This document shows, piece after piece, positions 1-61,900 of a stretch of DNA of 64,000 nt. The number at the start of each line of letters is the position of its first letter. Within the stretch, counting starts at the first letter, position 1. The stretch comes from Thelephora terrestris. Its lineage: Eukaryota > Basidiomycota > Agaricomycetes > Thelephorales > Thelephoraceae. A program made the translations under genes and the position numbers. A model generated the notes under the pieces. That model saw nothing but the letters and a program-made list of their open reading frames with translations. It did no database searches and was not told where the DNA came from. The stretch spans positions 496,001 to 560,000 of the forward strand of contig WIUZ02000018.1 of the NCBI GenBank assembly GCA_015956445.1. Reading direction: 5' to 3'.

Positions 1-187
1 AGCGGCCTCTGTCCGGTCATCTCTAAGCGGGGTGTAAGATCGCCCAGAATTCCACGACTTTGGCACGTACACGAATGTCTTGCCTTTCTGCAGCCTTTCT
101 GGAAGCTCGCCATTCAAAGATTCATAATCATCAGTCAATCCATCCAGCAGCCATCCGGCTCGACAATCCATCCCTACTGCTTCTTTG

Positions 188-3100
188 TCATGCGTCAGAG
201 TTGGACAAATGGGATATGCTATACAGCTTATGCGACATAATGGCGGCCGACCACTCTTCGATCACGATACTTGAGGTAAACAAAGGCATCAGATCCAGAG
301 GTACACCGTTGTGTATGGCATTGTGTGCGTGAAATTCAACGTCAATGAAAATTCCCGTGGGAATTGACTTGAGGAGAGCAAGTTGTACCCTATCCCAATT
401 CCGAGATGGGGTAGATTTCGGGGGGGAAGTGGACTCAGGATCTGGCAGAGGTGGGTCCAACGGACCAACCACACCATTCCAAATCATGGCGAGAGCGTCC
501 ACAGCACGCGTCATTTGTAATTGGGACAAAAAAGCAATCTTTTGCAGGAGTTGACTTTTCGTCTTGCTTTCGGTGCTCTCTGTCAATTCCTCCCTTATCT
601 TGCTAACGAGTTGTGAGACTTGTGTCGACAATATCTCAGGAAACCTACGTTGTGATGATGAGAATACGTTGACTGTTCGAGCCAGAGTGACTCACGAAAG
701 GGAGAAACTGGAAAACACCTCGTCTACTATATTGCAGTGTGCCAGATTTTTGTGGATGTGGGTCTTGGCCCGCTCTTTGAGGGTTGGTATTTCATACTAG
801 TACTGATGAGTCCGGTGGTGTCAGGCCGACGCGACCTCTATAGTTCAATAGCACTCTTGCTATCCAAACCTATTGTCACGAACGCGTGACATAGTAGCCA
901 AGATCACACAAATAATTCAAGACATTGGTCTTATTCGCAGTAATAAAAGTACAAGAGTGGCTAAAAAGGACTACAAACTCAGACAAGAACAAACGGGTCG
1001 ACATCACAGGAGCAGTTCTGAGGAAGAGGACAACGATGAGCGAAGTGGTGAGGATTGTGAATACTCTCAGGACAGTAGGACCACTCTCGCGTCGCCGGAT
1101 CCTGCCAACACTCCCTACACCCCAACACATCGTGAGATAGACTGTCATACATCTCTCGTCGCATGTCCGACAAGGCCCCGCTCACTAATGCGAACCCATA
1201 CCGGTCTTGGAGACCCGCCACCTCCACCTTCAACTTCATCCTCACCTGACGTGACTTGTCGGAGGGACGACAACGTTGACCAGAACGAGTCATCGGACTC
1301 TTGTGGGTCTTCTTCTTCTGGGACCTCTCCACCATCTGGCGAACTGGGGCAGGACTCCAGGGAGGGGATGGAGGGAGAGGAACGCCCTGATCCTGGCGGT
1401 GGCGAAGGGACGACTGGGGACTTGCAAGGGGGGTCGGTGCAATAAGCCCCGTGACATTGGTGTCCGAAATATCTGAAGAGAGATGCTGTCAGGAACATGG
1501 TATTTTTAAACTTTTTATAACACGCTCTTTCTTCGAACTCTTCTTACCAATTCTTATGTTTGAATGCTTCACATTCCTTATCCTGCACACCATTCATTCA
1601 AAACACACAAAACGCGCATACATTCACGGCAATACGGAACAACATGGCTATACTAGTGCTTATACAACGTCCTCAAAAGTCGACTCTATCTACGGCAGGC
1701 CTGAAGGTCATCAACTGTCCATCCCGGAGATCGAAGTGCTGGCCCCTCCTCGCTAGGACCTCCCCGAACATGGCGTCACCATCTTCGGCACTCAGCTGAA
1801 CGACTAGTTCAAGCCGATAGGAAGAGATACCTTCGAGCGGACCGATCAGCCTCCCAGATGTCACCGAACTGCTGAACACCTGGTCCCACATCTCCATCAC
1901 TGGGTGACTGCTCGACAGCACTATCGACGTAGTCGGCAAGCGACCCTCCGTCTCCCTCGTCGGACCCCTGGGTGGGATCCTGGATTGCGAGTCGACGCTG
2001 GTGGCGAAGCTGGATCTCCGACTCGACCTGTCGGTAGGGACGGTTGACCCGATAGCGGAACTCTCGTCCCCTATCTCGACCAGACTGGTCACCATCTGAC
2101 TCAACTGGACGCGGGTATGGGTAAGCCGATGGAACCATGCGATGAGCAGGACGGCGTCGAGAGCGTTTGCAACGTTGCCCCTTAGTCACCGGACGTACCT
2201 CGGCGACCCTCGGAGCATCTTCAGCTCGGTCAACCTCCATGACCTCATCCTCGATCTTCACCAACTGATGGATCGGCTGCAAGACGCAGCGCCCACAGTT
2301 CTCCTTGTCGGAAGCGGCCAAGGTGGAAGCAGGACCTGGAGTTGGAACGGGAACCGTGTTCTCGATCGGAGGCGTCGCATAGGACGACGGGTTAGGCGAT
2401 GGGAGTACCACCTCGTCGGCGTACTCCAACTCGAACGGAACATCGGCTGTCCCCTGACCAACCAATTTGGGACCCTCCTTGCAGTTGCAGGTCTTGTCCT
2501 GCAAGGACTCAACCTGCGCTGTCAACACAGCCACCACGTTCTCGAGTTCTTCAGTCTAGGAAATGTCAGCTTCCATCACTCTAAGCAATGATGAAAGAGG
2601 CATTACCTTTTCATCCCTCCTAGCCAACGCCCCCTTAATGTTGTTATCCCTAACCTTCAACCCGGCAATCAACTCTTGATGGTTGGCGACCATTGCCTCC
2701 AACGCCTCGTTCGTTCCCTGTTGAAAGGCGGCCAGAGTTTCCTTCATTTGAAGACCCTCTGCCGACAGACGAAGGACGTCTGCCTTCGCCTCCTTCACCT
2801 CGCGCTCCAAACGTTCAACCTAGGCAGTTTGATTAGTCGAGAGTCATACTCGAATATTCAAACGGAGAACCTACCTTGCTCTCCCCCTCCCGAACGAGCG
2901 ACCACAACAACGACGTGGTGGCAGTGGCATGGCGGACGGCCCGAGGAACGGTTGCTCCGTGCTCCAACAGGTCCTGATTGTAGATTCCCCTTTGCAGGGT
3001 GTACCAGAGCTCCTTCTTGATTGGATGCTCCAGCTCCCCAAACCTACCCCTCATTCGGAAGGCCACCTTCTCGGCGATGATCGTACGGACCCAGAGCTCG

Positions 3101-6100
3101 TCATCCCAGGTCAATCCTATCAAGTGAGGCATCGTCTCCCTGAGACGTTCGGCGTCCACTTCCGAGACGACCTCCAAGATCTAGAAGCCGTTAGTTTGAC
3201 ATCAACGCCAAAAGAACGTTCCTCTACCTAGAGGAAGGCGTTAGTGCAAACTACTAAGCTCTAGGTCTCCCCCATACCTGGTCATCCGTGGTATAGGGAG
3301 TCCCCGCCGCACAGGCATAGGTCTTGCGAGCGGCGGCACGACGGTCGATGCGAGAGATGGTAGAGATGCCGTTGGCGACTTTGTAGGTATGGTTGTTGGG
3401 GAAGGACATGTTTTGGTAAGATGATGGGGAAGTTGCTGGTGTTGCTGATCAAGGATGGCTCCAAGAAGACGTCCTTCTTATAGCCTAGATCGGTGATCCT
3501 TCACGTGACCTACCTCGACGAACCTCATTGGTCCGGGTCACATCAACTTCCGCCTCTGTACCATCATCGTTGGCTTACTACATCAAGCTGACACCTCGGC
3601 CCGCGGGACGGCCTTGGAAGAACTTCGTTCCGGAACGCCTAGAACGCGCGCGCACTAAAAATAGGTCTCAAGACCCTGATGACCCCTTTATGACATCACG
3701 AACCCCTTTTACGACCCCTCATGACTTTACGATTACGATCAACCCTGGACCCTGGAACACACACGTGGGCACGGGGTATCAACAATTGGACACTGTGCTT
3801 CTAATCGGATAGTAACCCTATCTGATCTAGTTGTGCTTTGGAAGCAGAGTAGGCCTGAGCCGAGAACGGCGGCCGAAGAATATAATCCCTGGTGCCACTT
3901 AGGAAGAACGATATTCCCGGGTGCTATGCCTAATCAAGACTGGGTCTGATCAAGCGATTATGGCTGCAACTCCCAGGTTACTGCCTGTCCGTTGGTATCA
4001 TACCACCTACAGACAACAAGGGATGTGTAGAGTCCTCGATATCTCTGGCCAATCGCAGAAGCCACGGGACGGACTCGCCTGACCCTTGGGTGTGGTCTAG
4101 ATTCAGGTACGAACTTTCATGACCCCATGCCCTCATTTCTTTTAGGACTAGTGTTATCTTACCCCTATGTTTCATGCGGACATTCGTTATCTTTTATGCA
4201 ATCCTTCACACGCTAGTAAGGCCCTTTGTCCTTTATCTTCCCACGCGTCATATTTGTTCGCTTCCCTTACTTAGCGTTCTCACACTCTTTATCTCCCTTT
4301 GTTCTGGACTTGATAAGGGTATATTAGGGTATTGATGTCATGGCCACTCCTTTAGTATAAGTAGCAACTGTGGCTGTATCGTAGTACCTTAGTTTTGTTA
4401 CCTCAGGAAATCCTCTGCCCTTCTCAGCCCAGTTGCAGTTAAGGCCAAGTCAGAGTTTCTTGTTTGATCCAAGACATCCCCCATCTGCTCTCCCTCCCGC
4501 TCTGCGCGTCAACTGCGCCTCGTAACTATAGACTCCCAGCAGTCATATTAGAACACCTCGAGCGTCCAGTCGATCAACTGGTGGAGTCATCAATCCTGTT
4601 GTAGGGATCAACCCTTGTTTGTTAAACCGAACGAAGTACGGTTTAGGTTGGGTTTCTCTTTAGGATTTCGACCTGACTTGTAGTGACCTCGGACAACCTA
4701 CCGGAAGAATAGAGACGTGATCGTTCTCTCACAAGCTAGTTGGACTAGTGAGTACTCTGCGGAGTCGGCTCAGTGAACTGGTAGTTGTTGGGGTAGAGTG
4801 GCCCTGACAGATGCCTGGAAAGGTCCCCAATGTTCCAAAGCGAAATGAGAGAAGTCGTCGTTCAAGCTGTTCATGATGACGTACATAAGGTCCACCCGTT
4901 TTTCTAGCTTCGCAATCCTGTCCTCCCTATCCCTCTCCATGACGTCCAATAAACGAACGGCTCCAGGGTGTTGAGCCCGGACCACAGGCCCAGAAAGCCG
5001 GGGATCTTCGTAACCAGCCTGCTCCCAGAACTCGGCGGAGCGTTATGAGCGGTGAGGAAATTAATGGCAACCTGGTTGTCATGAGCGATGTTGGCGGGGG
5101 AGTCATACAGATGTTGCTCCACGTCGAAGGGAGTAGCCGTCTCGAAGGACGGGGTGAAGGGGGTGGCGGCAGCGTTGAGCACGGCGTTGTTGGCAACGAA
5201 GGAAGACATAGTAGTGAGAGATATTTGGGAGAAGATGGTACTGGTGTTTGGTGAGAGTGGAAAAGAGACGATGAGGGAAACGATCATTAATTCCCCTGGC
5301 TTAAATACATCCTGACTCAAAAGGGAACCGAAAGGGGAAAACAATGACCTATTATTCACTAAAGTCCCAATTAGGATAAACGAACCCTCAGACCCAATCG
5401 CGATCCCATCAAAAACCGAGAAATCCCCACCGATCATGAGAAATCCCCATCAGCCTTCTATTACCACCATGAAACAAGAGAAATCCCCATCGATCATAAG
5501 AAATCCCCATCAGTCTTCTACTACTACCGTGAAACACGAGAAATCCCCATTCCGCTTCCAAAGACTCATTCGCTATTGTTCCCCTATCTCATACCCTCAT
5601 TCGTCGTCCTAAGTCCCACTTCCCCGACTCATCTACCCTACCCTAAACTACGCACAGACCATGTTGACTCCTGTTTGGTTCGTTGTAGAATACTGACTCC
5701 TGTAGAGAACCGGGTATATAAGGAAGAGCGTTCGCTCCTTCTTTTCCCCATTCTCAATCTCTTCTGTACTCCTCTAACCACAACCTGAATAAAAGTAAGC
5801 TGAAGAATTCTCTTCACGCCTTACCTTTTCTGACTCATCCCAGCAGGAATTCTCCTGCCAGTGTATGTTCAGCGCTCCTAACCCTTTCCCCTCTATCAGT
5901 CCAGTCCAGCGACCAATCATCCCTGACGCTAGGAGATCTATCTGGGAGTATAAACTCATCAGAAGTCTTCAAGTAAACCGAACTGCCGGTTTACTTACTC
6001 ATTTCCCTTACTACCGCCCTTTCGCAGCTCTCGACGCCGGAGTCACCACTCCCCCCTTTTTACTAGGAGCAGACCATCAATTCCTCTGGAATTCAGATCT

Positions 6101-9100
6101 TACTGAGAGCATCCTCGCGACAGTCTACTTCAGTATCAGTCCGGCCTTTTACTTTCCTTCCCCTTGTATTCACCTTACGACCAACGTCCACACCCACTCT
6201 CCTGCTATCATCGTTCTTTGGTGGGAAGTCCCAACTGAACTGCCTTATTCTGTTATAGAATACCTCGCCAACTTCGAACGTCTCAGTGACCAAGACTTCG
6301 AACCGTTTGCGCAGCAACTCAATCAGTTCTGCCAAGACTACCACTCACCCGTTCACCCTTATCAGACCGAGTCACCCCTCGCTCTCGACATCCCTCCTCT
6401 CCTCGTCTCCACACCCGGAACCCCCTTCAAGGTCAGACCCGACACCCCTCATCCAGCCGCTAATCCTCTAGCGCCCCACAAACAGTAAGCAGGCCCACAA
6501 CCCTGACACCTATCACACTCAGGGGTCAAACACACAGTTATAACCCTGTTGCAAACCCAGGGATATTGGAAGTCTCTTCACAGACTAGATTGGAGAAGAG
6601 GAGAAAGAAGGAGACAAGGGTCTTCAGGCACTCTTGCTCTAAGCACACAGCAATAGAGGTCACGGAGAGTCTGATGATAACAAATCTAAGGAGTACAGGC
6701 TAAACTACTCTGAGTATATATACTACTTAGATTTGTGATGTGACCGTTACATGTAACTACCCTAAAGATACAAACACAGACAAACATGGTCCGTGCGCAG
6801 CACTGCATGGTCTGTGCGTTACGTGGTGACTAATGCTACAAATTATCAGCTGATAAACGAAAGTGTGGCGGCCAATAGCAATTTGAGAGCATTACAAAGC
6901 AGTTACAAAGCATGACGTAGCCTGGGAATGTTCGGAAGGAATGTGGGTATGACTGACTAACAGCCAATGGCAAAAGGGGAGCATATGACTAAGAAATAGG
7001 GGCATATGATGTCATGTGGGTCATGCGCAGTAAACAATAGAAATGATGACTCAACTCCTGAGTCGTGGAAGGGGCGTGGCATTTGGTATATAACCAAAGG
7101 GGGTTGGATGACTGATCTCCCAACAAACCCACCTTTGTTACACACACAGCCAACATGCCTCGTGCTTCTACTCGTGTTCCTACTCGTCGTTCTTCCTCCT
7201 ATTCTCCTGTTCAGGAGAACAACTTCAATATCGACCGCTTCTCTCACGCTCGTCGGGACGCTTCCCGCCCTTATCCCACTTTGGGAAATGTCATGGACCG
7301 CACCGCCACCACCGACCCTAATGAGGGTTTTACCGACTTAGGTTCGGGATGTCGGTTGACATATTTGGCGTGTCTTCTGAGATTTCGCTTTTAGGTTTTA
7401 GGGATTTTATCCAGGCTTCTCGTAGGGTGTCTCGGCGCAAGTTGGCGCGTATCGAGACGAACCCCTATGCGACCGAACTCCTTAACAGGGGTGTCGAGTT
7501 CGTTACTGAGACCAATGAGACCTTCAACTCCGTGTTGGAGGCCAGCGTTATCCATACGGGTAACGTTGGGTCCATGTTGATGGACGAGATCGCTCATGTC
7601 AATGAGCGTGTCGATGGTCGTCAGGATGAAATCGAGAACCTGGAGAAGGACGTTGCCGTGTTGCAAGATTGGACGATGAAGACGGATGATGCCGCTGAGA
7701 AGCAGGCTGCGGATCTTGACATGTTGAAGGTAAGAAATGTGGGGTCGGGAGTAATTGACTTTCCTAACTCCACTTTTCTTTTAGGGAGAGGTGATCACGT
7801 TGAAGGACTTGATCCGGAGTCTCGTTACGAAGACCGGGGAATTGGAAGACGATAAGGTACTGGGACTGGGATCGAAGATAATTATCATCTTCTAACCCTG
7901 TTCCTTTTAGGTCCGCCTTACTCGTTGTGTTTCCGAGTTGACCGGAGAGGTCCGGGATCTCCAGAGGAGATGTAACGAGCCGGAGGTCCAAGTTGAAGAG
8001 GAAGAAGGGGAAGAGGTTCTGCATCGGGCCGGGTCGCCGATCATCCCTAATCGGGCTGAGTCGCCGCCTGCTCGTTTGTTGGTCCGTCACGAGAACAGGT
8101 TGGTTCCCATCGATGATGAGGTCATTGAGATCGGGAGCGACGAATTCTACCAGAACGTAGGAGTCGTCCGTCGGGACACTCCTCGTCCTGAGTTTGTTTC
8201 TACTCCTTGGGGTAGTCGCCGTCAATGGCCTGCTCTGGAGTATGATCCGTACGCCGAGTTCGTTCCTGATAGCGAACCAAACTCTGATACGGAGCTTCCA
8301 GATTACGATGACTTGTCGGACGTGGACCCGAACGAGATCCGGGAGCAGAATTGGTTGAACGAGGAGTTGGTGAGGTCGGCATTGGAAGTAGTACAAAGGA
8401 TTCGAAGAGATATTGATTAAATAACTCTTTTGTACTGTTGGCTTCTAATGCATCTTCTATATTGTCTATTGCGTGTGATCCATGGGTCGTAAAGCATAAT
8501 GGTTTTCATAAGTCTAATCCAAGGGTCAGATTAATAAGCCGGTTGACTTCTGCGAGAGGTCAGCGCGCGACACTCATTAATACATCCCTTGTTGTCGGTA
8601 GCCTGAATATCTACTAGTCGTCCAGGGGCAACGGAGGGCCAGGTAGGGGGGATCTTCATATGAAGGTCCGCCGGTACATGTTCACGTATTATACCTCGGG
8701 TCTTCTGGGGTATCTTGACTAGTAGCACGTTCCACGTATTGGACTTTGAGTCGTTAAGCATAGGGCATACTGCATAATAAACAGTTTACCGCCGTGTTTA
8801 GGGCAGGGCACCAACTGACTTAGTGGTGATGAGGCGTTAAATAAAGGAAATTAAAGGGGGTAAATGGCGAAATCATCACAGGTGGACGCCAAGAACGAGT
8901 AAGATGCATCACCTTGTCTGCAAGCCGGTAAATCGATTTCGCGGACGGGGATGGGGGCTTCGCCGCTTTCCAGTTGCCGGTTCTTGGCTCCGTGGTGAGT
9001 TCACGGCGTGGGTCTGAACTAAAGGGGGCAAAAATCACCTCGCCGGTGTACAAGTAATAGATCAGAGCCTCGAAGCTGCAGCAAGCTGTTCAGGTATGAA

Positions 9101-9724
9101 CATCCATCAACGACGGGTCTTGCGTACGTTACCGCTGCGATGTCACGGACGATGGCAACCCTCCCCATCCGCTCTGAAACGCGGTCGCGTCTGGAGTGGG
9201 ATGGTTAATGGGGAAGATTAGAGGAGAATTCAGAGCTAACATGCGACGGTTTTCAACCTCACTCATGCCTCGCGATGGCTGAGGCGGATTCCCAGGGGTC
9301 ATACGAGCCTCTGAGCCTAAGACTTGGGCAATACTTGGGAGCTCTTGTTCACAATGCTCAATAGGTTCTTCATCTTCAAGGTCGCTGTCCGATAAGTAGT
9401 CATAGTGGTCGGTGTAAGGGAAGGAGTCAGCCCCGGGGGGGAATCCTCCATTGATGTCTTTCGTCCGTCCTTCGGAGAATCCATCTGAGAACACTTTTTG
9501 ACACAATGTTGTCAGATACGCAACATCGTGGGGGGACTCCGTCACTCACGCGTGGAAAAGTAAGGAATTGTGTTCAGCACATGTCCGTTGCAGTAGAGTG
9601 ATTGAGGTGAGCTAACACGCCCTGAGGCTTCTCTGCGAGAGAAGACGTAGATCTTTGTGTCGACAAATGTTCCAGAAGTGATGGAACTATTGAGTGCATC
9701 CAACAAGATCTGTGGCGCGTCCAT
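188..9724 (-). CDS. BTB/POZ domain protein, five exons, one 8.1-kb intron
   Basis: The exons on the minus strand are 9724-9550, 9493-9133, 9075-8913, 796-696 and 644-188. All junctions are GT-AG and keep phase, giving 418 residues. The N-terminal half is typical of basidiomycete BTB proteins: SGTFVDTKIYVFSRR near residue 17, an acidic YLSDSDLEDEE stretch, FEALIYYLYTGEV near residue 180, and KSIYRLADK running straight into YEIPTLKERAKTH and NIVDEVFSSF across the long intron. BTB domains mediate dimerisation and often recruit cullin-3; the exact role here is unknown. Intron 3 (797-8912) contains the nested mobile units D, B1 and A1, yet its splice sites are intact, so the gene may still be expressed. 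The last about 60 codons (below position 370) resemble the family less and may hide another intron or an altered C-terminus. The start at 9724 is the first ATG that begins the conserved part. Confidence 0.8.
1487..4809 (-). mobile_element. LTR-like unit A, copy 1, inserted in B1
   Basis: The 3,323-bp unit begins TGTCAGGAACATGG and ends GTGGCCCTGACA. It is flanked by the 5-bp duplication GATGC (1482-1486 and 4810-4814), and the sequence on either side continues the larger gene of B1. A near-complete copy lies inverted at 55507-58847 (3,341 bp) with its own duplication. The ends form a 7-bp inverted repeat, TGTCAGG/CCTGACA. The unit holds one spliced gene on the minus strand (3409-1809) and, on the plus strand, a TATA-like box (about 4356-4361) roughly 450 bp before the end. 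That arrangement resembles an LTR whose U3 carries an antisense gene. It looks whole and is the youngest of the three nested units. Confidence 0.8.
1809..3409 (-). CDS. gene of unit A (copy 1): coiled-coil protein of unknown function
   Basis: This is a spliced gene on the minus strand of A1 starting with MSFPNNHTYKVANG. In order it shows a basic, Ser-rich N-terminus, a helical block containing LWYTLQRGIYNQDLLEHG, a heptad-rich coiled coil (EREVKEAKADVLRLSAEG and a second segment ending AQVESLQDKT), a short CNCKEGP motif, a Pro-rich linker, a basic patch, and an acidic Ser/Asp/Glu-rich tail. The same order and intron positions are seen in copy 2 (56884-58527). The layout is gag-like, but I recognise no named capsid or zinc-knuckle family. 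It is a mobile-unit gene and is treated as a fossil. Function is unknown. Confidence 0.55.
5410..5560. promoter_or_regulatory. iterated motif in the divergent promoter of unit B
   Basis: GAGAAATCCCC-type motifs recur at about 5418, 5437, 5479, 5498 and 5538. They form an imperfect direct repeat of about 60 bp between the two divergent B genes. Related motifs on the other strand (GGGGATTTCTCGTGATCGG) lie at about 44550-44600 in copy B2, also between the divergent genes. A TATATAAG box at 5715-5722 precedes the 207-residue ORF. The placement suggests upstream activating sites serving both directions. This is inferred from position and repetition only. Confidence 0.45.
5865..6488 (+). CDS. 207-residue protein of unit B, copy 1
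   Basis: A single uninterrupted ORF starts MFSAPNPFPSISPVQRP and ends NPLAPHKQ. Copy B2 encodes a protein of the same length (44234-43611, minus). By eye about four of five residues match, and many changes are conservative (I/V, D/E, S/T). Visible features are a central hydrophobic, aromatic-rich block (FLWNSDLTES, ILATVYFSISPAFYFP, PAIIVLWW) and a Pro-rich C-terminus. There is no signal peptide, no clear membrane span and no recognised domain. The equal length and conservative differences suggest past selection on the protein. Treated as mobile-unit content of unknown function. Confidence 0.55.
   Translation: MFSAPNPFPSISPVQRPIIPDARRSIWEYKLIRSLQVNRTAGLLTHFPYYRPFAALDAGVTTPPFLLGADHQFLWNSDLTESILATVYFSISPAFYFPSPCIHLTTNVHTHSPAIIVLWWEVPTELPYSVIEYLANFERLSDQDFEPFAQQLNQFCQDYHSPVHPYQTESPLALDIPPLLVSTPGTPFKVRPDTPHPAANPLAPHKQ
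6514..7154 (+). other. unit D sequence downstream of B1, with promoter of the D gene
   Basis: No gene was found. This part of D follows the B1 target duplication. A TATATA box at 7087-7092 lies about 65 bp before the start codon of the D gene at 7155 and is its likely promoter. Confidence 0.4.
7155..8420 (+). CDS. gene of unit D: coiled-coil, acidic-tailed protein
   Basis: The product begins MPRASTRVPTRRSSSYSP. It is encoded in several exons with short introns near 7340-7400, 7725-7790 and 7855-7910. It has a basic Ser/Arg-rich N-terminus, then a helical block (FIQASRRVSRRKLARIET), a coiled coil of about 90 residues (VNERVDGRQDEIENLEKD; SELTGEVRDLQRRC) and a long acidic tail (YDDLSDVDPNEIREQN). 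The order matches the unit A protein in style, but I see no clear sequence homology. Function is unknown and gag-like by architecture only. It is mobile-unit content treated as a fossil. The exon borders are approximate. Confidence 0.5.
8421..8818. other. 3' part of unit D, no gene
   Basis: Noncoding tail of D up to its right end. A short stretch (CATCCCTTGTTGTCGGTAG near 8585) also occurs in unit A (about 56292 and, inverted, about 4013). This links the two units outside their coding parts. Confidence 0.4.
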
Positions 9725-9949
9725 ATTGTGGTGGTTCGGAGTTGGGCTTGTGAGCCACGAAAGTGTGGCTGGTTGAGTATATACGGCGCGCATCTAGTTT
9801 GTCGGCCCGTACCTCCCTCCTCCTCTTCTGGAACATATACGTGATTGCGGACCCGTGGAGACGATCTTTCGGCTGAGTGCAACCGATGAATCCCACTTCT
9901 ACTGCGAAAGAACGTGTGTTAACTGGGACCCTAGTCATCATCTGCTGTA

Positions 9950-11560
9950 CAGTGTACGGATTTCGTCATAGCGATACTCTACGCTACCAACCCATCGCCT
10001 CAGTTCGTCCTCCAGCCCCGGCGGCACGCTTTCCTGCGGATACCACATGTTCGAAAAGTGCCCCCAGCGCGTGCTGCGACGCTGCAAGTCTTACCATCTC
10101 CGCCTTACATCTGCCATTAGATGAGTACGATGGGTGCAAGATTGTGAGCTCTTCACCGGCGGGGACACAACTGAATCCTCGTCATATACCTCTAAGTGAT
10201 TGAGAGAACGGAGGTACTGCCATAGATCGCAGTGGTAGATGGTTGACTCGTCCAGAGGGCCCACAAGCTTGAAGAGTCGTCTAAATTCTTTCATAACGTG
10301 CAAGTCCTAGAGGGAGAAAAGATCACGGAGGGTGTGAAACATGCGAAAGCGTTTGACGTTGGCCCGTCGTGGGTGATTCCGGATAGTCGCGACGGACTGA
10401 GTGAGGATTTCGTTCTGTTGCGTACTGACGGATGATCACGTTCGAAAAAACCGGAGCGAGGAATATTTCTTCCATGCTGGGGTCATCTCTCTTGTGCATC
10501 ATCGACGTGAATCTGGTGGAAGGACACGAAATGCGAGTGGCGATCTCATATCCAGGCCCTCCATCACTTATGATCTAGTAGAAGGTTTGAACATCGGGGA
10601 GGGTGACAACTCTTTCTCGGAGGACGCCTTCAAATGATGTGCGCGCAGTGATCCTCATACACACCGTTCGCAGGGTCGGTGAGGCTTCCGGGAAATCGGG
10701 TAGCCGCGAAGCGTGGAAGCCCTCCGAAGGTCTTGCCGTGAAATCATATGCGGCGAGGTTTGAGAAAGCGAAGCGGGTGAAGGATGGTGTCAACTTCGAC
10801 CTTGAATGGAAACGTAGCACCCTCAGATTTACTGCCTGGGTGAAGATGATAGGAGGGGGAGCGGTTGTCGTGTCGGAGGTGTCCGGTTTCCTGATTGTAA
10901 GAGCATACAGGAGTGGAGGCGGTCCAGAATTGACTCCTGAAAGCCTTTGAATGTCTGCCCAATCATTGCACACAGAACCGAGACTCCTGATCCTTTCGCT
11001 GTGGGAAGAAAGGAGGGCCATCACACTGATGGTCGATAATGATATCCAGAGCGGACCCCTTCGCACGTTCGAGGAAAGTGGGCACGTAGCCCTCGCATTT
11101 TGAGAGGATTAACTCGGACCATAGTTCGGTACGCTGAAAAAAAAAGCTTTGCGCCAATGACAGCACACAAGTTGGCGTGGGGACGGTCTCTCTGGGATGA
11201 GAGATGGGTGGGGATGAAAAAGAGGATATCCAACGAGATTCGGTTGATATTGATGAGCGAGTTCCTCCATTCGCGAATGGTTGCCAGCGCAATAGAGGTA
11301 TCCTGATCAAGTCGGGAGACATTGTCGAAGGAGAATCTGCAGAGGTATATCGACTCCGGGATCCCGAGAATCTTTCGCAACGACGTAGGATGGAGAATAC
11401 GATGCGCGATTGAGCTCCTGGTTCATAGCAAACTTGAAGACGAGTTGTTGAAGGGACGCCGGGCCCTTCCAAGGATATGTTTGTTTGTTCATGGAAGAGT
11501 TTGGAGAAGTGCTCACTGCTCGCATCCGCTTGACCTGCACGTGGTGAGCTCTCGAGTCGC
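9950..11560 (-). pseudogene. F-box/leucine-rich-type gene, probably decayed
   Basis: Minus-strand segments read like a basidiomycete F-box protein. One contains TIREWRNSLININR near 11270. Another contains TELWSELILSKCEGY followed by LERAKGSALDIIID near 11050-11130, the usual F-box to leucine-rich junction. Weaker repeat-like segments follow towards 10575 and 10091 (WQYLRSLNHLEVYDED). The segments lie in different frames and I could not find a set of introns that keeps the whole open. It is either a pseudogene or has exons I have misread. Such proteins normally recruit substrates to SCF ubiquitin ligases. The first part of this gene is duplicated at 14778-15114. Confidence 0.5.
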
Positions 11561-43110: not shown

Positions 43111-43610
43111 CTCAGTGGGCAGTTTTTTTTACTTCTAAATATATTGTTTGACCCCTATTGTTCTATTTTTCCCCTTTATCTGTTTCTTCACATGCTAGTA
43201 AGGCCCTTTGTCCTTTATTTCCCCACACATCATACTTGCTCGCTTCCCTTACTTAGCGTTCCCACACTCTTTATCTCCCTTTTTTCTTCCTGCTTAAGGG
43301 TAGATTAATTTCTCATACTGTTGGGTCACTCATAGTAGTATAAATAGCCGGTCTGACAGTAGAGTAATTCCCTAGCTTTGAAATCACAGGAATTCCTCTG
43401 CCCTTCTCTGCCTCAGTGTAGTTAAGGTCAAGTCGGAGATTCTTTTGAAACACCTGCGGCATGGTCCTTTCTCCTCCCACTCTAGGCACTTGTTGAGCCT
43501 TCAGACCTTTTTCCTTAGTGGAATCTGCAAATACTTGAAGCCCCTCTTTGCCACTTGGGTTGTGACACTCATCGGCAAAAGCCTTTCGACTGTCAGGGTT
43601 GAAGGCCTGC

Positions 43611-44234
43611 TTACTGTTTGTGGGGCGCTAGAGGATTAGCGGGGTAGGGAGTGTCAGGACGAGGTTTGAGGAAGGGGGTTCCTGGAGTAGAAACGAGGGG
43701 AGGAGGAATATCAAGAGCAAGTAGTGACTCAAACTGATAAGGGTGGATGGGAGTGTTGTAATCGCTACAAAATTCAACTAGGTGTCGAATGAACGGTTCA
43801 AAGTCTTGATCGCTAAGACGTTCAAAGTTGCTGAGGTATTCTATAACAGGGTAAGGTAAATCAGTTGGTATGTCCCACCAGAGAACGATGATAGCCGGGC
43901 AATGGGTGTGAACGTTGGTGGTTAGGTGGATTCGAGGAGTAGGAAAATAAAAGGCCGGACTGATACTGAAATAAACAGTGGCTAGCACGCTTTCAGTGAG
44001 ATCAGATTTCCAGAGGAACTGATGATCAGTGCCTAGTAGGAACGGAGGAGTGGTTACTCCTGCGTCGAGGGCAGCGAAGGGGCGATAAAATGGGTAATGG
44101 GCTAATAGACCGGAGGTCCTATTTAGCTGAAGACTCCTGATGAGTTTATACTCCCAGATAGAGCATCGGGTGTCGGGTATGACCGGTTGTGGGATAGGAC
44201 TAGTAGAAGGGAAGGGGTTAGGGGCGCTGAACAT
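43611..44234 (-). CDS. 207-residue protein of unit B, copy 2
   Basis: Open ORF from MFSAPNPFPSTSPIPQP to NPLAPHKQ, the same length as copy 1 (5865-6488). Conserved blocks include SIWEYKLIRSLQ, YRPFAALDAGVTTPPFLLG, ATVYFSISPAFYFP and NFERLSDQDFEPF. The differences are mostly conservative. No known domain is recognised and no signal peptide is seen. Its 3' end lies within 20 bp of the left end of unit B. Confidence 0.55.
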   Translation of the reverse strand: MFSAPNPFPSTSPIPQPVIPDTRCSIWEYKLIRSLQLNRTSGLLAHYPFYRPFAALDAGVTTPPFLLGTDHQFLWKSDLTESVLATVYFSISPAFYFPTPRIHLTTNVHTHCPAIIVLWWDIPTDLPYPVIEYLSNFERLSDQDFEPFIRHLVEFCSDYNTPIHPYQFESLLALDIPPPLVSTPGTPFLKPRPDTPYPANPLAPHKQ

Positions 44235-44797
44235 ACACTGGCAGGAGGATTCCTGCTGAATGAGTCAGATGGAGGGTAAGACGTGAGGAGAATTCCTCAG
44301 CTTACTTTGTTTTATTGAGCAGTTGGTAGACGAGTACAGAAGAGATTGAGAATGGGGAAAAAAAGGAGCGAATGCTCTTCCTTATATACCCAATCCTCTA
44401 CAGGCTTAGTAATCATACAATGAGTCAAACGAGAATCAACATGGTCTGTGCGTAGTTTAGGGCAGGGTAAATGAGTCAGGGAGGTAGGACTTAGGACAAC
44501 TGATGGTGAGTACGAATAGGGGAACAATAGGAGATGAGTCAATAAGGATACAGTGGGGATTTCTCGTGATCGGTGGGCATTTCTCAGGATTTGATGGGAT
44601 CGCGATTGGGGTTGAGGGTTTGTTTACCCTTTTTGGGATGACAATGAACAATGATGCCTTGTCATTACTCGTTTGGGTGTCCATTTGATCTGGACGTATT
44701 TAAGTTGCAGGATATCTTTGTCTTTCCCCTCATCGTCTCTTTTCCACTCCCACCAATCCACAACAGCTCTCTCTTCTCATAAACAATCCTCGATACT

Positions 44798-45665
44798 ATG
44801 TCTCTCAACACCGCTGCCACCCCCTTTGTCTCCGTCTCCTACAAGGACGACACCCCCTTCGACATGGAACAACACCTATACAATACTCCGGCCAACATTG
44901 CTCACAACAACAGGGTTGCCGTGGAGTTCTTAACTGCCCACCAAGCTCCTCCTCAATTTTGGGATCAAGCTGGGTATGAGGACCCCAACCGTACTCATCG
45001 GCGCACGCAGTGCGCTCCTGTTTTGTTGGATGCTATAGAGCAAGAGAGGGAGGACAGGATAAAGAAGTTGGAAAGTCGGTTGGACGTGATGTATGTTGTC
45101 GTTAACAGTCTTAACAAGGACTTTTCTCACTTCGCTTTGGAACATTGGAAACCTTTCCAGGAATCTCTCTACCGATATTTTGGCCACCAGTGTCAAGGGG
45201 CTTACTGCACCGACCCTGCTCCTTACACCCCTGTTGTCCCTCCGACACCGCCAGGATCAAGGGGTTCCTCTCCCTCAATCCCCTCCTTGGAGTCCTGCTC
45301 AGGTTCCTCAGATGGTGGCAAGGACGTTGAAGAAGCCGCGCAAGAGTCCGATGACTCGTTCTGGACAGTGGTGTCGCCCGTCAAGCAAGAGTCGCCAAGT
45401 TCGAATGCGGCTGAAGTTGGAAGTGGCGAGCCTGCAGGAAAAGTATGGGTTCAATCTAGTTCGTGAAGGACTAGATTCAGTGAGGAGGGATATGTTTGAT
45501 GGCTTGGAGCATGATGTTCTGGGGTGCCGGGACTGCTGGGTGGATCCAATATCTCGGGACTATACTTACTGTCCTCAATCCATGTATAATCCTTTCCATT
45601 TTGCCCATCATTGTCCGATAGATCAGGATTGCGTCTGTAAGGTAGATCCTTTCCTCCTGGTTTAG
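44798..45665 (+). CDS. larger gene of unit B, copy 2: coiled-coil and Cys/His-rich protein
   Basis: Starts MSLNTAATPFVSVSYKDDTP. In order: TPFDMEQHLYNTPANIAHNN; a coiled coil (IEQEREDRIKKLESRLDV); HFALEHWKPFQESLYRYFG with HQCQGAYCTDP; a Pro/Ser linker; an acidic SDDSFW segment; and a C-terminal domain with VLGCRDCWVDP, YCPQSM and HFAHHCPIDQDCVC, possibly zinc-binding. The coding potential is spread over two overlapping frames in both copies, so an intron or a frame change is likely. It is preceded by a divergent promoter shared with the 207-residue ORF. Treated as mobile-unit content of unknown function. Confidence 0.5.
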
Positions 45666-45879
45666 TTTCTTTCTTGTTTCCCTTTGTAGTATTACCACGA
45701 TTGCGAATAAGACCAATGTCATAAATTATTTGTGTGATTTTCTTCAATATGTCACGCGTTCGTGACATCGACTTGACCTTTATGATGAAGGACAACCTAC
45801 CAGGAGTCGCTAGTTGGACTAGCTAGGTTCTGGGAACCTCAGTGAACACTGGGAGCTAAAGGGTAGAGTGGCCCTGACA

Positions 45880-47164: not shown

Positions 47165-49480
47165 AAAATGAACTGCTACTATCCGGGTGGAGTCAGGACA
47201 CGACCAGAATAGCAGGAGTGAAGGTGAGGGGTCGCCGGTTGTGCAGAGGTTGGGAGGAGGGAGAAGCTGGATAGTGGAGGGAGGACCATGGTAGGTTGGG
47301 AAGTCGTTGGGATGAGAGAAAGAACTCCGTACTAGCAAACTCCTTGCTAGACAATGGTGATGGGCTAGGGGGCTAGTGGACTAGGGGGCTAATTGGCTAT
47401 TGGAACTATGGGGCTATTGGAATCGATGGTCAGAGCAAAGAGCGAGAGGTTTGCGGTGATCAGGTCGTTCAGGCAGAAGGGAAAAGAGGTGTGAAGAGGC
47501 CCAGGGGGTTTCTCGTTTGTTCAGCTAGCTAGTACAGAGTATTTATAGGTAAAGACAGCGCGATCTACGCAAAAGAGATGTGAAAAGTAGTGAACAAGTG
47601 GGGAAACAGTGGGAGAATCAGAACAGGTAAATAGAAGGGGGTAAACGAGGGTCCGACGCAGGGTAGGGAAACAAACGGTTCATCGGGAGACCGGGATGAG
47701 GCTGGGGCAGGTATTACCGAGATGGAGCGATCGTGCAAAACAGAACTGAAAGGGGAAGTCTACGGGTTTGAGATCAAAAGATTGTAACCGGGCGGGAGAT
47801 CAGGAGCAGTCGAAGGTGATTGGCGAGCGAGGGGGGGACGGGTTGACACATGTCTAGGCAGAAGGGAACCGGACCGGAGGAGGGGACACGTGATCAGGAC
47901 AAGATAAGAGATTGGGAGGCATCAGCCGATCGCAACATCAGTGCCGTTCAGGGAGGACAGACACAGAGGCAGAGATAGCGAAGGGGGACACGCGTTGATG
48001 GGATTGCGGGAGTGGTTTGGTGATTGGGATGTCGAATGGAGAGCCCATTCAGCTACTTTTTCCCCATGACCCATGGACCGTACGGTGTGACAAAATCCCA
48101 TGACCCATGGGCCATACGTCGCTGTACGACAGGTACAAATCCCCATGACCCATGGACCGTACGATGGTGTGTGGGCCCCATGACCCGTGGGTTGTACGGT
48201 GCCGTATGATGGTATGGCCTGTCCATGACCCATGGGTTGTACGATGCCGTATGGTGGTATGCCCTTCCCATGACCCATGGGCCGTACGGTGGTGCTGGAC
48301 AGCCATCCACCCTGCCCATGACCCATGGGGCGTACAGCGCCGTACGGTGGTATGCCCTGCCCATGACCCATGGAGCATACGGCGCCGTACGGTGGTATGC
48401 TCTGCCCATGACCCATGGAGCGTATGGCACCGTACGACAGTATGCCCTGCCCATGACCCATGGAGCGTACGGTGAACTGCTACTATCTGGGTGGAGTCGG
48501 AACACGACCAGAATAGCAGAAGTGGGGGTGAGGGGTCACCGGTTGTGCAGAGGTCGGGAAGGGGAGAGAAGCTAGACAGAGGAGAGGGAACCACGGTAGG
48601 TTGCGACGTTGTCGGGACGAGAAGGGAGAACTCCGTACTAGCAAACTCCTGCTAGACGATGACGATGGGCTAGGGGGCTAGTGGGCGATGGGCTAGTAGG
48701 CTAGGGGTCTATTGGAACTATGGGGCTAGTGGAATCGATGTCAGAGCGAGGAGCTGGAGGTTTTCGATGATCAGGTCGTTCAGGCAGAAGGGAGAAGAGG
48801 TGTGAAGAGGCCCAGGGGTTTCTTGTTCGTTCAACTAGCTAGTACAGGGTATTTATAGGTAGGGACAGTGCGATCTACGCGAAAGAGATGGGAAAAGTAG
48901 CGAACAAATGGAGAAACGGTGGGAGAATAAGAACAGGTAGACAGAAAGGGATAAACGAGAGTCCGACGCAGGGTAGGGAGACAAACGGTTCATCGGGAGG
49001 CCGGAACGAGGTTGGGACAGGTCTTACCGAGAGGATGGAGCGATCGTGAGAAACAGAGCCAAAAGGGGAAGTCTACGGGTTCGAGATCAAAAGATCGTAA
49101 CCGGGCGGGAGAGCGGGAGCAGTCGAAGATGATTGGCGAGCGAGAAGGAACGAGTCGACACGTGTCTAGACTGAAGGGAACCGGACCGAGGGAGGGGACG
49201 CGTCATCTCGACGGGATAAGGGATCGGGAGACATCGGCCGATCTCAACATCACGTGCCATTCGGGAAGGACGGCCACAGAGGTGGAAGCAGCGTGCGATG
49301 ACGCACGTCGAAGGGATCGCGGGAACGGCTCGATGATCGGGACGTCAAGTGGGCGTGACCTCCCGTGACCGATCGAGGGGCCGTCGGTTCGCATAGGGGG
49401 TTTCGTCGAGATAGACGGGGTAGGAGCTGGGACTGGAGCTTAAGTCGAAGCTCGCGCGAATAGACGGCGGGTCAACGGCG
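47165..49480. repeat. tandem pair of a 1.3-kb unit (unique part plus 45-bp array)
   Basis: The sequence from about 47168 (GAACTGCTACTATCCGGGTG) recurs from about 48472 (GAACTGCTACTATCTGGGTG) with the same order of landmarks. These are AGCAAACTCC, GGGCTAGGGGGCTAGTGG, TATTTATAGGTA and a final block leading into a 45-bp minisatellite. The offset is about 1.3 kb. No gene is supported. The TATTTATAGG segment could be a promoter of an unrecognised element. Confidence 0.7.
48058..48478. repeat. 45-bp minisatellite, array 1
   Basis: About nine imperfect 45-bp units are built around CCCATGACCCATGG, a palindrome ACGGCGCCGT and a TATGCC spacer. The period is a multiple of three, so several frames stay open on both strands (for example MTHGAYGAVRWYALP). 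Confidence 0.85.
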
Positions 49481-49483
49481 CCA

Positions 49484-49890
49484 TACAATGGTATGCCCTA
49501 CCCATGACCCATGGGTCGTACGGCGCCGTACAACAGTTTGCTCTGCCCATGACCCATGGAGCGTATGGCGCTGTACGACAGTATGCCTTGCCCATGACCC
49601 ATGGGTCGTACGGCGCCGTACGGTGGAATGCCTTGCCCATGACCCATGGGGCGTACGGTACCGTACGGTGGTTTGCCCTGCCCATGACCCATGGAGTATA
49701 TGGCGCCGTACGGTGGTATGCCCTGCCCATGACCCATGGGTTGTATGGTGCTGTACGGGGGTTTGCCCTACCCATGACCCATGGAGCGTACGGTGCCATA
49801 CAACAATTTGCTCTACCCATGACCCATGGAGCGTATGGCGCTGTATGACAGTATGCCTTGCCCATGACCCATGGGTCGTACGGCGCCGTA
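49484..49890. repeat. 45-bp minisatellite, array 2
   Basis: About nine units of the same 45-bp repeat lie at the end of the second 1.3-kb unit. The array passes straight into the left arm of palindrome R. Confidence 0.85.
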
Positions 49891-49891
49891 C

Positions 49892-55506: not shown

Positions 55507-58500
55507 TGTCAGGGCCACCCTACCCCAACAACTACCAGTGCACTGAGCCGACTCCGCAGAGTACTCACTAGTCCAACTAGCTTGTGAGAGAACGATCACG
55601 TCTCTATTCTTCCGGTAGGTTGTCCGAGGTCACTGCAAGTCAGGTCGAAATCCTAAAGAGAAACCCAACCTAAACCGTACTTCGTTCGGTTTAACCAACA
55701 AGGGTTTATCCCTACAACAGGATTGATGACTCCACCAGGTGATTGACTGGACGCTCGAGGTGTTCTAATATGAACGCTGGGGTTCTATAGTTACGAGGCG
55801 CAGTTGACACGCAGAGCGGGAGGGAGAGCAGATGGGGGATGTCTTGGTTCAAACAGAAAACTCTGACTTGGCCTTAACTGCAACTGGGCTGAGAAGGGCA
55901 GAGGATTTCCTGAGGTAACAAAACTAAGGTACTACGATACAGCCACAGTTGCTACTTATACTAAAGGAGTGGCCATGACGTCAATACCCTAATATACCCT
56001 TATCAAGACAGAACAAAGGGAGATAAGGAGTGTGAGAACACTAAGTAAGGAAAGCAAACAAATATGACGTGTGGGAGAATAAAGGACAAAGGGCCTTACT
56101 AGCGTGTGAAGGATTGCATAAGAGATAACGAATGTCCGCATGAAACATGGGGGTAAAGATAACACTAGTGCTAAAGGAAAAAGGGGCATAGGGTCATGAA
56201 AGTTCGTACCTGGGGATCACACCCAAGGGTCAGGTGGAAACCTCTCATTGCTTTGTGCAATTTTAGAGTGGCTCCGAGATAAGGGACCATGCATCATCCC
56301 TTGTTGTCTGTAGGCGGTAACAGCATCACGGACTAGTGGCAACCTCAACGTACGTCCGAACATGAGGAGGTCGAGCCTAGACTCATGGGACATGAGGGAT
56401 TACAGATTCGCCGGTGTTTCACGCTAACGGCTACTCCACGTTCGCTGGGCTAAACAAAAGGAGTCTAAGGCACTCCTTCCGAATAACGGCGATTCCTTCC
56501 TCCGGTTAGGAGACTGTGATGTGACTGTCCACGTGTGTGATCAGGGTCCAGGGTTGATCGTAATCGTAAAGTCATGAGGGGTCGTAAAAGGGGTTTGTGA
56601 TGTCATAAAGGGGTCATCAGGGTCTTGAGACCTATTTTTAGTGCGCGCGCGTTCTAGGCGTTCCAGAACGAAGTTCTTCCAAGGCCGTCCCGCGGGCCGA
56701 GGTGTCAGCTTGATGTAGTAAGCCAACGATGATGGTACAGGGGCGGAAGTTGATGTGACCTGGACCAATGAGGTTCGTCGAGGTAGGTCACGTGAAGGAT
56801 CACCGATCTAGGCTATAAGAAGGACGTCTTCTTGGAGCCATCCTTGATCAGCAACACCAGCAACTTCCCCATCATCTCACCAAATGTCTTTCCCAAACAA
56901 CCACACCTATAAGGTCGCCAACGGCATCTCCACCATCTCCCGTATTGATCGCTGTGCTGCCAACCGCAAGAGTTACGCCAGTGAAGCAGGGGTTCCCTAT
57001 ACCACAGATGACCAGGTATGGGGGAGATCTAGTGCTTCTTGTGCTTGCGCTAACTTTTCCCTCTAGGTAGAGGTTACGTTCTTTTGGCGTTAATGTCAAG
57101 CTAACGGCTTCTAGATCTTGGAGGTTGTCAAGCAGGTGGACGCCGAACGTCTCAGGGAGACGATCCCACATTTGATGGGGTTGACCTGGGACGATGAGCT
57201 CTGGGTCCGGTCCATGATTGCCGAGAAGGTGATCTTCCAAATGAGGGGTAGGTTCGGGGAGTTGGAGCATCCGATCAAGAAGGAGCTCTGGTACACCCTG
57301 CAGAGGGGAATCTACGATCAGGACCTGTTGGAGCACGGGGCGACTGTTCCTCGGGCCGTCCGCCACGCCACCGCTTCCACCACGCTGTTGTGGTCGCTCG
57401 TTCGAGAGGGAGAAAGCCGGGTAGGTTCTCTGTTTGAATATTCGAGTATGACTCTCGACTAATCAAACTGCCTAGGTTGAACGTTTGGAGCGCGAGGTGA
57501 AGGAGGCGAAGGCAGACATCCTTCGTCTGTCTGCGGAGGGTCTTCTGATGAAGGAGATTCTGGCCGATTTCCAAAAGGGGACAAACGAGGCGTTGGCAGC
57601 GGTGATACTCAATCATCAGGAGTTAGTCGCCGGTCTGAAGGTCAGGGACACCAACATCCGGGGTGCTTTGGATGCGAGGGACGATCGCCTGGACAGGCAC
57701 TCAAAGAAGATCGGGGAGGAGAACGCAAAGGTTCTTTCAGCCTTTGCAGGTTTATGCAATTTCTGATAGACTTCTTCTAGATCGAGGAACTCGAGGATCT
57801 GGTGTCCGTGTTGACGGCACGGGTTGAGTCCTTACAGGACAAGACCTGCAACTGCAAGGAAGGTCCGGTGTTGGTGGGACAGGGTATGGCCGATGTTCTG
57901 TTCGAGCTGGAGTACGCCGACGAGGTGGTACTCCCATCGCCTAACCCGTCGTCCTATGCCACGCCTCCGATCGAGAACGCAGTTCCCGTTCCGACTCCGG
58001 CTCCGGCTTCCAGTCTGGCTGAGTCCGACAAGGAGAACTGTCGGCGTTGCCCGTTGCAGCCAATCAGTCAGCTGGTCAAGATCAAGGACGAGGTCATGGA
58101 AGTTGACCGGGCTGAAGATGCTCCGAGGGTTGCCGAGGTACGTCCGGTGACTAAGGGGCAATGTTGCAAACACTCTCGACGCTGTCCTGCTCATCGCATG
58201 GCTCCTTCGGCTAACCCGTACCCTCGACCAGTTGAGTCGGATGGTGACCAGTCTGGTCGAGGTGAGGGACAATCCTTCCGATACCGGGTCAACCGTCCCA
58301 ACCGACAGGTCGAGTTGGAGATCCAGCGTAGGCACCTCACTCAACTCGCAGTTCAGGATTCCGCCCAGGGGTCTGACGAGGGAGACGGAGGGTCTCTCGA
58401 GGACTACATCGACAGCGCTGCTGAGCAGTCACCCAGTGATGGAGATGTGGGATCAGGTGTTCCGCAGTTCGGAGACATCTGGGAGGCTGATCGGTCCGCT

Positions 58501-58847
58501 CGAAGGTATCTCTTCCTATTGGCTTGAACTAGAGGTTCAGTTGAGCGCGGAAGATGGTGACACCATGTTCGGAGAGATCCTTGCAAGGAGGGGCCAGTTC
58601 TTCGATCTCTGGGATGGAACGCTGATGATCATGAGGCCTGTTGTAGATCGAGTCGACTTTTGAAGAACTTTATAAGCATCGTATATAGCCATGTTGTTCT
58701 GTTTGCCGTGAATGGATTACGTGTTTGTGTGTTTGAATGTTTGGTGTGAAGGATAAGGAGTGTTAAGCATTCAAACATAAGAAATGGTAAGAAGAGTTCG
58801 AAGAAAGAGCTTGTTATAAAAAGTTTAAAAATACCATGTTCCTGACA
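55507..58847 (+). mobile_element. LTR-like unit A, copy 2, inserted in P2
   Basis: The 3,341-bp unit begins TGTCAGGGCCACCC and ends ATGTTCCTGACA. It is flanked by the 5-bp duplication GAAAT (55502-55506 and 58848-58852). It is the inverted counterpart of A1 (1487-4809) over its whole length and carries the spliced gene 56884-58527. No terminal direct repeats or polymerase genes are seen. It looks whole. Confidence 0.85.
56884..58527 (+). CDS. gene of unit A (copy 2): coiled-coil protein of unknown function
   Basis: Starts MSFPNNHTYKVANGISTISR. A TATAAG box lies about 70 bp upstream (about 56812). Several exons with short introns occur, for example near 57015-57115, 57420-57475 and 57732-57780. 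In order: a short basic start; a helical block (LMGLTWDDELWVRSMIAEKV, KKELWYTLQRGIYDQ); coiled coils (EREVKEAKADILRLSAEG; ELEDLVSVLTARVESLQ); CNCKEGP; a Pro-rich linker; a basic patch (KHSRRCPAHR); and an acidic tail ending FLLA. Copy 1 keeps the same plan. Gag-like in layout only. Function unknown; treated as mobile-unit content. Confidence 0.55.
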
Positions 58848-61865: not shown

Positions 61866-61900
61866 ACCTAACTCTGACCTGGCCTAGTTCAGCCTTATCT

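What the first reader, a model, noticed from the sequence alone, without database searches (positions are those of the whole stretch)
819..8821. A set of LTR-like units carrying spliced genes but no polymerase
Units A (2 copies), B (2 copies), D and C share TGTCA/TGACA-type ends. A and B have perfect 5-bp duplications, and A and C share their last several hundred bases. Each carries its own promoter(s) and gene(s), and none shows reverse transcriptase, integrase or terminal direct repeats. They are either extremely long solo LTRs with embedded genes or a gene-carrying non-autonomous element class. I know of no described fungal element with this layout.
Basis: partly seen in the sequence, partly recalled or inferred. 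Interest (0 to 1): 0.88.

Follow-up and report, generated by a model that had tools for sequence, protein, structure and literature searches.

The report
Fungal retrotransposon LTRs carrying their own genes
Three nested DNA pieces in a fungal genome are very long ends (LTRs) of retrotransposons, and unusually each end carries its own spliced, protein-conserving gene, mostly on the strand opposite to the element's own genes.

Summary
The units are real, but A at least is an LTR, not a polymerase-less transposon. Window 819-8880 is a Russian doll: LTR C (TSD GGTGG) holds D (TSD CCTAT), which holds A (3,323 bp, TSD GATGC). Elsewhere in this genome A flanks, in direct orientation, a 6-kb gag-protease-RT-RNaseH-integrase-chromodomain region with a self-priming primer site: a Ty3/gypsy chromovirus. 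A second chromovirus family, E, has 2.9-kb LTRs of the same plan. The surprising part holds up: the LTRs carry spliced genes under purifying selection (dN/dS 0.05-0.22 in the main exons, 10-12 sampled copies). In A and E the gene is antisense to gag-pol, lies in U3 and is homologous between families. C's gene is antisense by inference; D has an inferred antisense gene plus a sense ORF. D ends occur 317 times and C ends 218 times; complete copies examined have perfect 5-bp duplications in 10 of 11 (D) and 8 of 9 (C). No full-length C or D was found in a partial search. Because LTR-LTR recombination removes gag-pol but not these genes, hundreds of accessory-gene copies may persist. The tested proteins match no known family; a regulatory or anti-silencing role is inferred. 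Ten open-access literature searches found no such fungal LTR gene.

The parts
819..873 (-). LTR C, first part (its 3' end in the inferred LTR sense); TSD GGTGG at 814-818 and 8881-8885
6514..8880 (-). LTR C, remainder (2,422 bp joined with 819-873); sense strand inferred to be minus from terminal and R-start similarity to A
   Evidence: 218 copies of its end in the genome
7155..8420 (+). spliced gene of LTR C (antisense to the inferred LTR sense): exons about 7155-7341, 7395-7729, 7785-7855, 7911-8420; TATA near 7087
   Evidence: selection; splice sites read by eye
874..1486 (+). LTR D, first part; TSD CCTAT at 869-873 and 6509-6513
4815..6508 (+). LTR D, remainder (2,307 bp joined with 874-1486); plus orientation inferred from its ends
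   Evidence: 317 copies of its 3' end in the genome
979..5210 (-). antisense gene of LTR D, split by the insertion of A and frameshifted in this copy; C-terminal exon ends at 979
   Evidence: selection in other copies
5865..6488 (+). sense ORF of LTR D, 207 aa, ending 20 bp before the LTR end; TATA 5715-5722 upstream
   Evidence: dN/dS 0.05 in other copies
1487..4809 (+). LTR A, 3,323 bp; TSD GATGC at 1482-1486 and 4810-4814
1673..3409 (-). spliced antisense gene of LTR A: exons 3278-3409, 2875-3180, 2607-2819, 2199-2555, then 1673-2104 if a 94-nt intron (2105-2198) is removed (479 aa); if it is kept, a second frame stops at 1809-1811 (465 aa). The last exon is the least certain. Antisense TATA 3478-3482
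   Evidence: selection
4356..4401 (+). sense promoter of LTR A: TATA 4356-4360 and inferred start of R (TAGTTTTGTTAC, 4390-4401), complementary to the primer site of the full-length element
   Evidence: 8 genomic copies with the same primer site
55507..58847 (-). second A LTR copy, TSD GAAAT, exons 1-4 of the antisense gene unshifted
43591..45767 (-). second, diverged D LTR copy, TSD TCGAC, inserted in an A-like LTR relic

Best explanation
The units are long LTRs of Ty3/gypsy chromoviruses that have placed accessory genes inside the LTR. Shown for A and E: the LTR pair flanks gag-pol with a chromodomain, the primer site pairs with an LTR stretch just past a TATA (predicted self-priming), and U3 contains a multi-exon gene on the opposite strand that is conserved between the two families. 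Inferred for C and D: they are LTRs of related families, seen here only without an internal region; C's gene is antisense, and D has one antisense gene and one sense ORF in R-U5. How it likely works (inference): the sense promoter makes the genomic RNA; the gene's own TATA promoter in mid-U3 makes a spliced antisense mRNA for an accessory protein. Because the gene sits in the LTR, a full element carries it twice and a solo LTR keeps it, so many copies can supply the protein in trans. I think it most likely acts in the nucleus on element transcription or on host silencing (about 50%); nothing here tests that step.
For: A: 30 kb of contig C23 holds three A LTRs (99.9% identical) around two 6.0-kb internal regions; outer 5-bp duplication CATCA. 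Pfam in the internal ORFs: RVT_1, RT_RNaseH, Integrase_H2C2, rve, Chromo, zf-CCHC. The internal region occurs 8 times, and the primer site follows an LTR end 8 times on the same contigs. E: 2,931-bp LTRs, 99.93% identical, outer duplication ATGTC, pol 62-63% identical to A in 3 copies, one copy examined. Self-priming: 12-nt (A) and 11-nt (E) complementarity to the LTR about 35 nt past a TATA. Antisense exons of A and E: 34% identity over 113 positions, E 4e-10; 39% over 75, E 1e-11. Selection: dN/dS A exons 1-4 0.07-0.13 (10 copies), C exons 0.11-0.22 (11 copies), D antisense 0.16 and 0.20 (12 copies); D sense ORF 0.05 (10 copies). Variable sites pile up at one codon position: p 7e-29 in A, 2e-17 and 6e-10 in C, 1e-15, 1e-8 and 3e-30 in D, columns taken as independent. 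Frame unshifted in 9 of 10 A (exons 1-4), 10 of 10 C, and 11 of 11 D rows for antisense exon 1 and for the sense ORF. Perfect TSD in 10 of 11 D and 8 of 9 C complete copies.
Against: No full-length C or D was found by predicted primer site, predicted polypurine tract or recurrent flanks, checked by eye in capped lists: 100 of 278 places for D-like ends, no flank of a D end recurs; 100 of 137 for C, three flanks occur twice, of which two pairs proved to be 7-kb segmental duplications without pol and the third (two facing C ends on C1) was not fetched. So LTR status of C and D rests on ends, TSD, TATA plus R-start layout and gene plan. No expression data: transcripts and splicing are predicted. 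Copies tested are the best-scoring ones, so young copies are over-represented. In A's last exon the spliced frame is not constrained at 2706-2900 of the antisense strand (dN/dS 1.19 and 0.85) though it is at 2901-3136 (0.16, 0.27), so that part of the gene model is uncertain. The window's own D copy is frameshifted, the other window D copy has a stop in the antisense match and one D sense ORF (L017) has a stop. One control, the C 3' region, departed from equal codon positions (p 0.017, a third-position deficit). The D segment 1700-1930 did not single out one frame (0.49 and 0.41). Structure models were too poor to use (mean pLDDT 56 and 34).
Confidence: 0.86

Rival explanations
1. A distinct class of gene-carrying non-autonomous elements (no LTR pair, no internal region) mobilised in trans; this could still hold for C and D.
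For: C and D are single units with 5-bp duplications, and no copy with an internal region was found in the partial searches.
Against: A, with similar ends, the same TSD length, TATA plus R layout and an antisense gene, is an LTR. E has antisense exons homologous to A's and is an LTR. C shares a 48-bp block with E in matching LTR orientation. Solo LTRs commonly outlive their internal regions (general knowledge).
Confidence: 0.1
2. Host genes that were captured by LTRs and are kept by host selection rather than for the element.
For: Purifying selection is seen among copies that are mostly single LTRs; no homologue is known that would fix the origin.
Against: The gene is conserved between two mobile families (A, E), and C and D ends occur in hundreds of copies, so their spread follows the element. 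Fungal genomes other than this one could not be searched.
Confidence: 0.05
3. The antisense transcription matters as RNA (for example double-stranded RNA that regulates the element), and the protein is incidental.
For: Antisense transcripts with proposed regulatory roles are reported for other retroelements (PMC7264820, passages seen).
Against: dN/dS of 0.05-0.22 in the main exons with frames kept in nearly all rows examined requires selection on protein. A regulatory RNA role in addition is not excluded.
Confidence: 0.05

Closest known systems
Ty3/gypsy chromoviruses, including self-primed (Tf1/sushi-type, name recalled) elements
   Same: gag zinc knuckle, pol order RT-RNaseH-integrase, C-terminal chromodomain, TG..CA LTRs, 5-bp TSD, self-priming primer site
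   Different: LTRs of 2.3-3.3 kb against 440 bp in the Tcn1-like element SM-Tcn1 described in PMC2864245 (passages seen, from its section on non-seed plants), with multi-exon genes inside the LTR
Plant LTR retrotransposons with antisense additional ORFs (Grande, RIRE2, Retand)
   Same: accessory gene antisense to gag-pol, own promoter reported for Grande gene23, function undetermined (PMC7264820, PMC11963269; abstracts and passages seen)
   Different: there the ORF lies in the internal region between pol and the 3' LTR, so a solo LTR would lose it (inference); here it lies in U3 of the LTR
Retroviral antisense genes (HTLV-1 HBZ, HIV-1 asp)
   Same: antisense gene expressed from a promoter in the 3' LTR (PMC10186651, start of abstract and passages)
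   Different: their coding regions extend into internal retroviral sequence (recalled for HBZ); here the whole predicted gene, promoter to stop, lies within the LTR
MMTV superantigen ORF in the LTR (recalled; no paper read)
   Same: a protein gene inside the LTR U3
   Different: MMTV sag is on the sense strand (recalled); the A and E genes are antisense and multi-exon

Membership tests
Ty3/gypsy chromovirus LTR (unit A) | two copies in direct orientation flanking gag-pol | tested here: met
   A-INT-A-INT-A on C23, the one locus read in full
Ty3/gypsy chromovirus LTR (unit A) | RT, RNase H, integrase and C-terminal chromodomain | tested here: met
   Pfam
Ty3/gypsy chromovirus LTR (unit A) | TG..CA ends and 5-bp target duplication | tested here: met
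Self-primed elements (Tf1 type) | primer site after the LTR complementary to the start of the element's own RNA | tested here: met
   (A 12 nt, E 11 nt); the RNA start itself is inferred from TATA spacing
Ty3/gypsy chromovirus LTR (units C and D) | paired copies flanking gag-pol | tested here: inconclusive
   none found, lists capped at 100 places
Solo LTRs (units A, C, D in the window) | single LTR flanked by a target duplication, no internal region | tested here: met
   for C and D only if they are LTRs
Non-autonomous LTR elements (LARD/TRIM, names recalled) | a pair of LTRs around a non-coding interior | tested here: not met
   the window units are single
Plant-type antisense aORF elements (Grande/Retand) | antisense ORF in the internal region between pol and the 3' LTR | tested here: not met
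   in A the pol frame runs to about 20 bp from the internal end, and the antisense gene is in the LTR

The most novel reading that the evidence does not exclude
The LTR has become a self-contained gene cassette: by moving accessory genes (with promoter, introns and stop) into the LTR, these chromoviruses turned solo LTRs, normally dead remnants, into lasting trans-acting gene copies. C and D would be families that now persist as LTR-only units, spreading and recombining without any gag-pol of their own; more than half of informative site pairs over 100 bp apart do not fit one tree in A and C, and about half in D.
Probability: 0.15. Interest if true: 0.92.

Novelty: new variant of a known kind. 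Interest (0 to 1): 0.74.

Why it matters
Solo LTRs are usually treated as inert scars or stray promoters. Here single LTRs keep intact, selected protein genes, so loss of gag-pol need not end the element's accessory functions. It gives a fungal counterpart to retroviral antisense genes in high-copy elements and makes testable whether an LTR-borne protein controls transposition or host silencing. It also warns that annotation and repeat masking can confuse such LTRs with host gene families.

Tried and rejected
Full-length D at C1:187-199 kb (spacing 7.5 kb): nested D and C units, no gag-pol seen. Full-length D at C12:3248231 (primer-site pattern): a chance match at an A LTR. Predicted primer site of C: the 8 matches were all the A primer site. 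Predicted polypurine tract before C or D: 22 matches, no clear recurring context; my rough expectation by chance was about 15. Recurrent C flanks: two of three repeated pairs are segmental duplications. Protein families: Pfam (A exons 2 and 4, C exons 2 and 4, D sense, D antisense and D C-terminal exon), NCBIfam (five of these) and PDB sequences (A exon 2, D sense, D antisense only) gave nothing above noise; Csm1_N and DivIC at E 0.04 and 0.03 (C exon 2) and a stress protein at E 0.03 (D antisense) are chance or coiled-coil level. AlphaFold models of the A exon-2 domain and D sense protein had mean pLDDT 56 and 34, so no fold search was run. Viral contigs: no relative of the A exon-2 protein or of pol. 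A coiled coil in A's protein: my crude heptad count was only slightly raised. Dual coding of A's last exon: both frames are open in the 10 copies, but random synonymous recoding leaves the second frame open in 8,281 of 20,000 trials one way and 426 of 20,000 the other, so only suggestive. Literature: ten searches of an open-access library showed no fungal LTR-borne gene; subscription papers are not covered.
Full report
What is in the window. Reading 1-10,000 and comparing with other copies shows three nested units. C (819-873 + 6514-8880, 2,422 bp) is interrupted by D (874-1486 + 4815-6508, 2,307 bp), which is interrupted by A (1487-4809, 3,323 bp). Each has TG..CA ends and a perfect 5-bp duplication. 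A second A copy (55507-58847) and a diverged second D copy (43591-45767) also have perfect duplications.

Copy number. A first look gave 995 candidate places for a 2,001-bp query, two thirds of it A; 40 were scored and most matches were 93-96% identical. The D 3' end occurs 317 times and the C end 218 times with up to 2 mismatches; the reversed-pattern control gave 0 for both. In the loci held, complete copies have perfect 5-bp duplications in 10 of 11 D and 8 of 9 C. Of five complete A copies, the two in the window have one; the other three are the LTRs of a full-length tandem whose outer flanks match (CATCA).

A and E are LTRs. On contig C23 three A copies alternate with two copies of a 6.0-kb region in a 9.31-kb period, 99.98% identical. 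The region encodes a gag ORF with a zinc knuckle and a 1,322-aa pol frame, read and by Pfam (RVT_1, RT_RNaseH, Integrase_H2C2, rve, SH3_Tf2-1, Chromo). The region occurs eight times in the genome, and the sequence just after the LTR occurs eight times on the same contigs; only the C23 tandem was read in full. Bases 3-14 after the LTR are complementary to LTR bases about 35 nt past a TATA box, the self-priming arrangement. A second family, E (three pol copies at 62-63% identity; one examined, C23:1909986-1921674, its pol read by eye), has 2,931-bp LTRs, 99.93% identical, outer duplication ATGTC and an 11-nt self-priming match. A's U3 is therefore about 2.9 kb.

The LTR genes. In A the gene runs antisense to gag-pol, with its own TATA in mid-U3, three introns placed by inspection plus an optional 94-nt fourth, and a stop near the LTR start; the window and C23 copies both give 479 aa when the fourth is removed. 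E's LTR has homologous antisense exons. C's gene is multi-exon; C's LTR sense is inferred to be the minus strand because that strand has a TATA and an R start resembling A's, ends in GGCCTGACA as A ends in GGCCCTGACA, and aligns with E in matching orientation, so the gene is antisense. D starts TGTCACGAAC against TGTCAGGAAC in A and ends CCCTGACA like A, so it is read as plus; it has an antisense gene and a 207-aa sense ORF that ends 20 bp before the LTR end.

Selection. Pairwise dN/dS in the reading frame: A exons 1-4 0.11, 0.11, 0.07, 0.13 (10 copies); C 0.14, 0.22, 0.17, 0.11 (11 copies); D antisense 0.16 and 0.20 (12 copies); D sense 0.05 (10 copies). The other two frames of these exons give 0.92-4.9. 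The D segment 1700-1930 gives 0.49 and 0.41 in two frames. Introns, upstream and 3' stretches give 0.46-1.84, apart from the 55-nt intron 2 of A (0.33 and 0.11 in two frames), too short to weigh. In A's last part the frames overlap: the unspliced frame is constrained to about 2900 of the antisense strand (0.27, 0.47, 0.51) and the other frame beyond it (0.16, 0.27) but not before it (1.19, 0.85), so the exact splicing there is unsettled. Variable columns are concentrated at one codon position in each exon set and not in four of five control stretches; the fifth (C 3', p 0.017) has a third-position deficit.

Rows dropped before these counts. A: duplicates of the window or C23 copy, two pieces of an interrupted copy and one partial copy at 74%. 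C: duplicates of the window copy, and C6 also. D: the interrupted window copy in all counts, the second window copy in all but, and D14. Damaged copies exist: the window D copy is frameshifted, the second window D copy has a stop in its antisense match and the D copy in L017 a stop in its sense ORF. Frames were unshifted in 9 of 10 A rows (exons 1-4), 10 of 10 C rows, and 11 of 11 D rows for antisense exon 1 and for the sense ORF.

Mosaicism. In C, windows covering bases 1-600 differ by 0-7% between copies (mostly 0-4%) and the last 320 bp by 1-5%, while gene windows differ by 0-27% in patches. In A, bases 1051-1350 differ by 0-7% and gene windows by 0-33%. D shows no such clean contrast. Of informative site pairs more than 100 bp apart, 57-63% in A and C and 46-52% in D do not fit a single tree, and misfit within 100 bp is lower than in all 200 shuffles in each family. 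The copies recombine heavily. Why silent sites of the A and C genes are more diverged than their flanks is not explained; exchange with diverged relatives is my guess.

Full-length C and D. Searches by predicted primer site, predicted polypurine tract and recurrent flanks found none. The flank lists were cut at 100 places (of 278 for D-like ends, control 40; of 137 for C, control 1) and read by eye. Three C flanks occur twice: two pairs are segmental duplications that share 6.7-7.0 kb on both sides of a truncated or diverged C piece, with no pol match; the third, two C ends facing each other on C1, was not fetched. Absence is not shown.

Function. The proteins searched match no family or solved structure (Pfam, NCBIfam; PDB for A exon 2 and the two D proteins), and models were poor. 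By analogy with retroviral and plant antisense genes (PMC10186651, PMC7264820, PMC11963269; passages seen), I infer a nuclear regulator or anti-silencing role. Shown: gene content, conservation, LTR identity of A and E. Inferred: transcription, splicing, function, LTR family and orientation of C and D.

Literature. Ten searches (listed in Tried and rejected) showed additional ORFs in plant internal regions but none inside fungal LTRs; this covers open-access full texts only, mostly seen as listings.

Noticed in passing
window 60602-64000 and L033 1-230: A 3.63-kb inverted repeat, 99.2% self-complementary, centred near 62416; either a long palindrome or an assembly fold-back.
   Followed up: partly
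window 7339-7386 and L030 2950-2995: C and E LTR genes share a 48-bp block (85% identical) lying in a putative 50-53-nt intron with an atypical donor; its core occurs once in the window.
   Followed up: partly
window 2105-2198 and 1809-2104: A's last exon is open in two frames in the 10 copies tested, joined by an optional 94-nt intron; E has two overlapping ORFs in the corresponding part.
   Followed up: partly
A and C LTR copies: Gene bodies are more diverged than much of the flanking LTR, in a recombinant patchwork; the cause is unknown.
   Followed up: partly
window 43175-43590 and 45768-45879: An A-like LTR relic that hosts the second D copy.
   Followed up: partly
window 48108-49947 and 51437-51771: Arrays of 45-bp tandem repeats in both orientations.
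   Followed up: no
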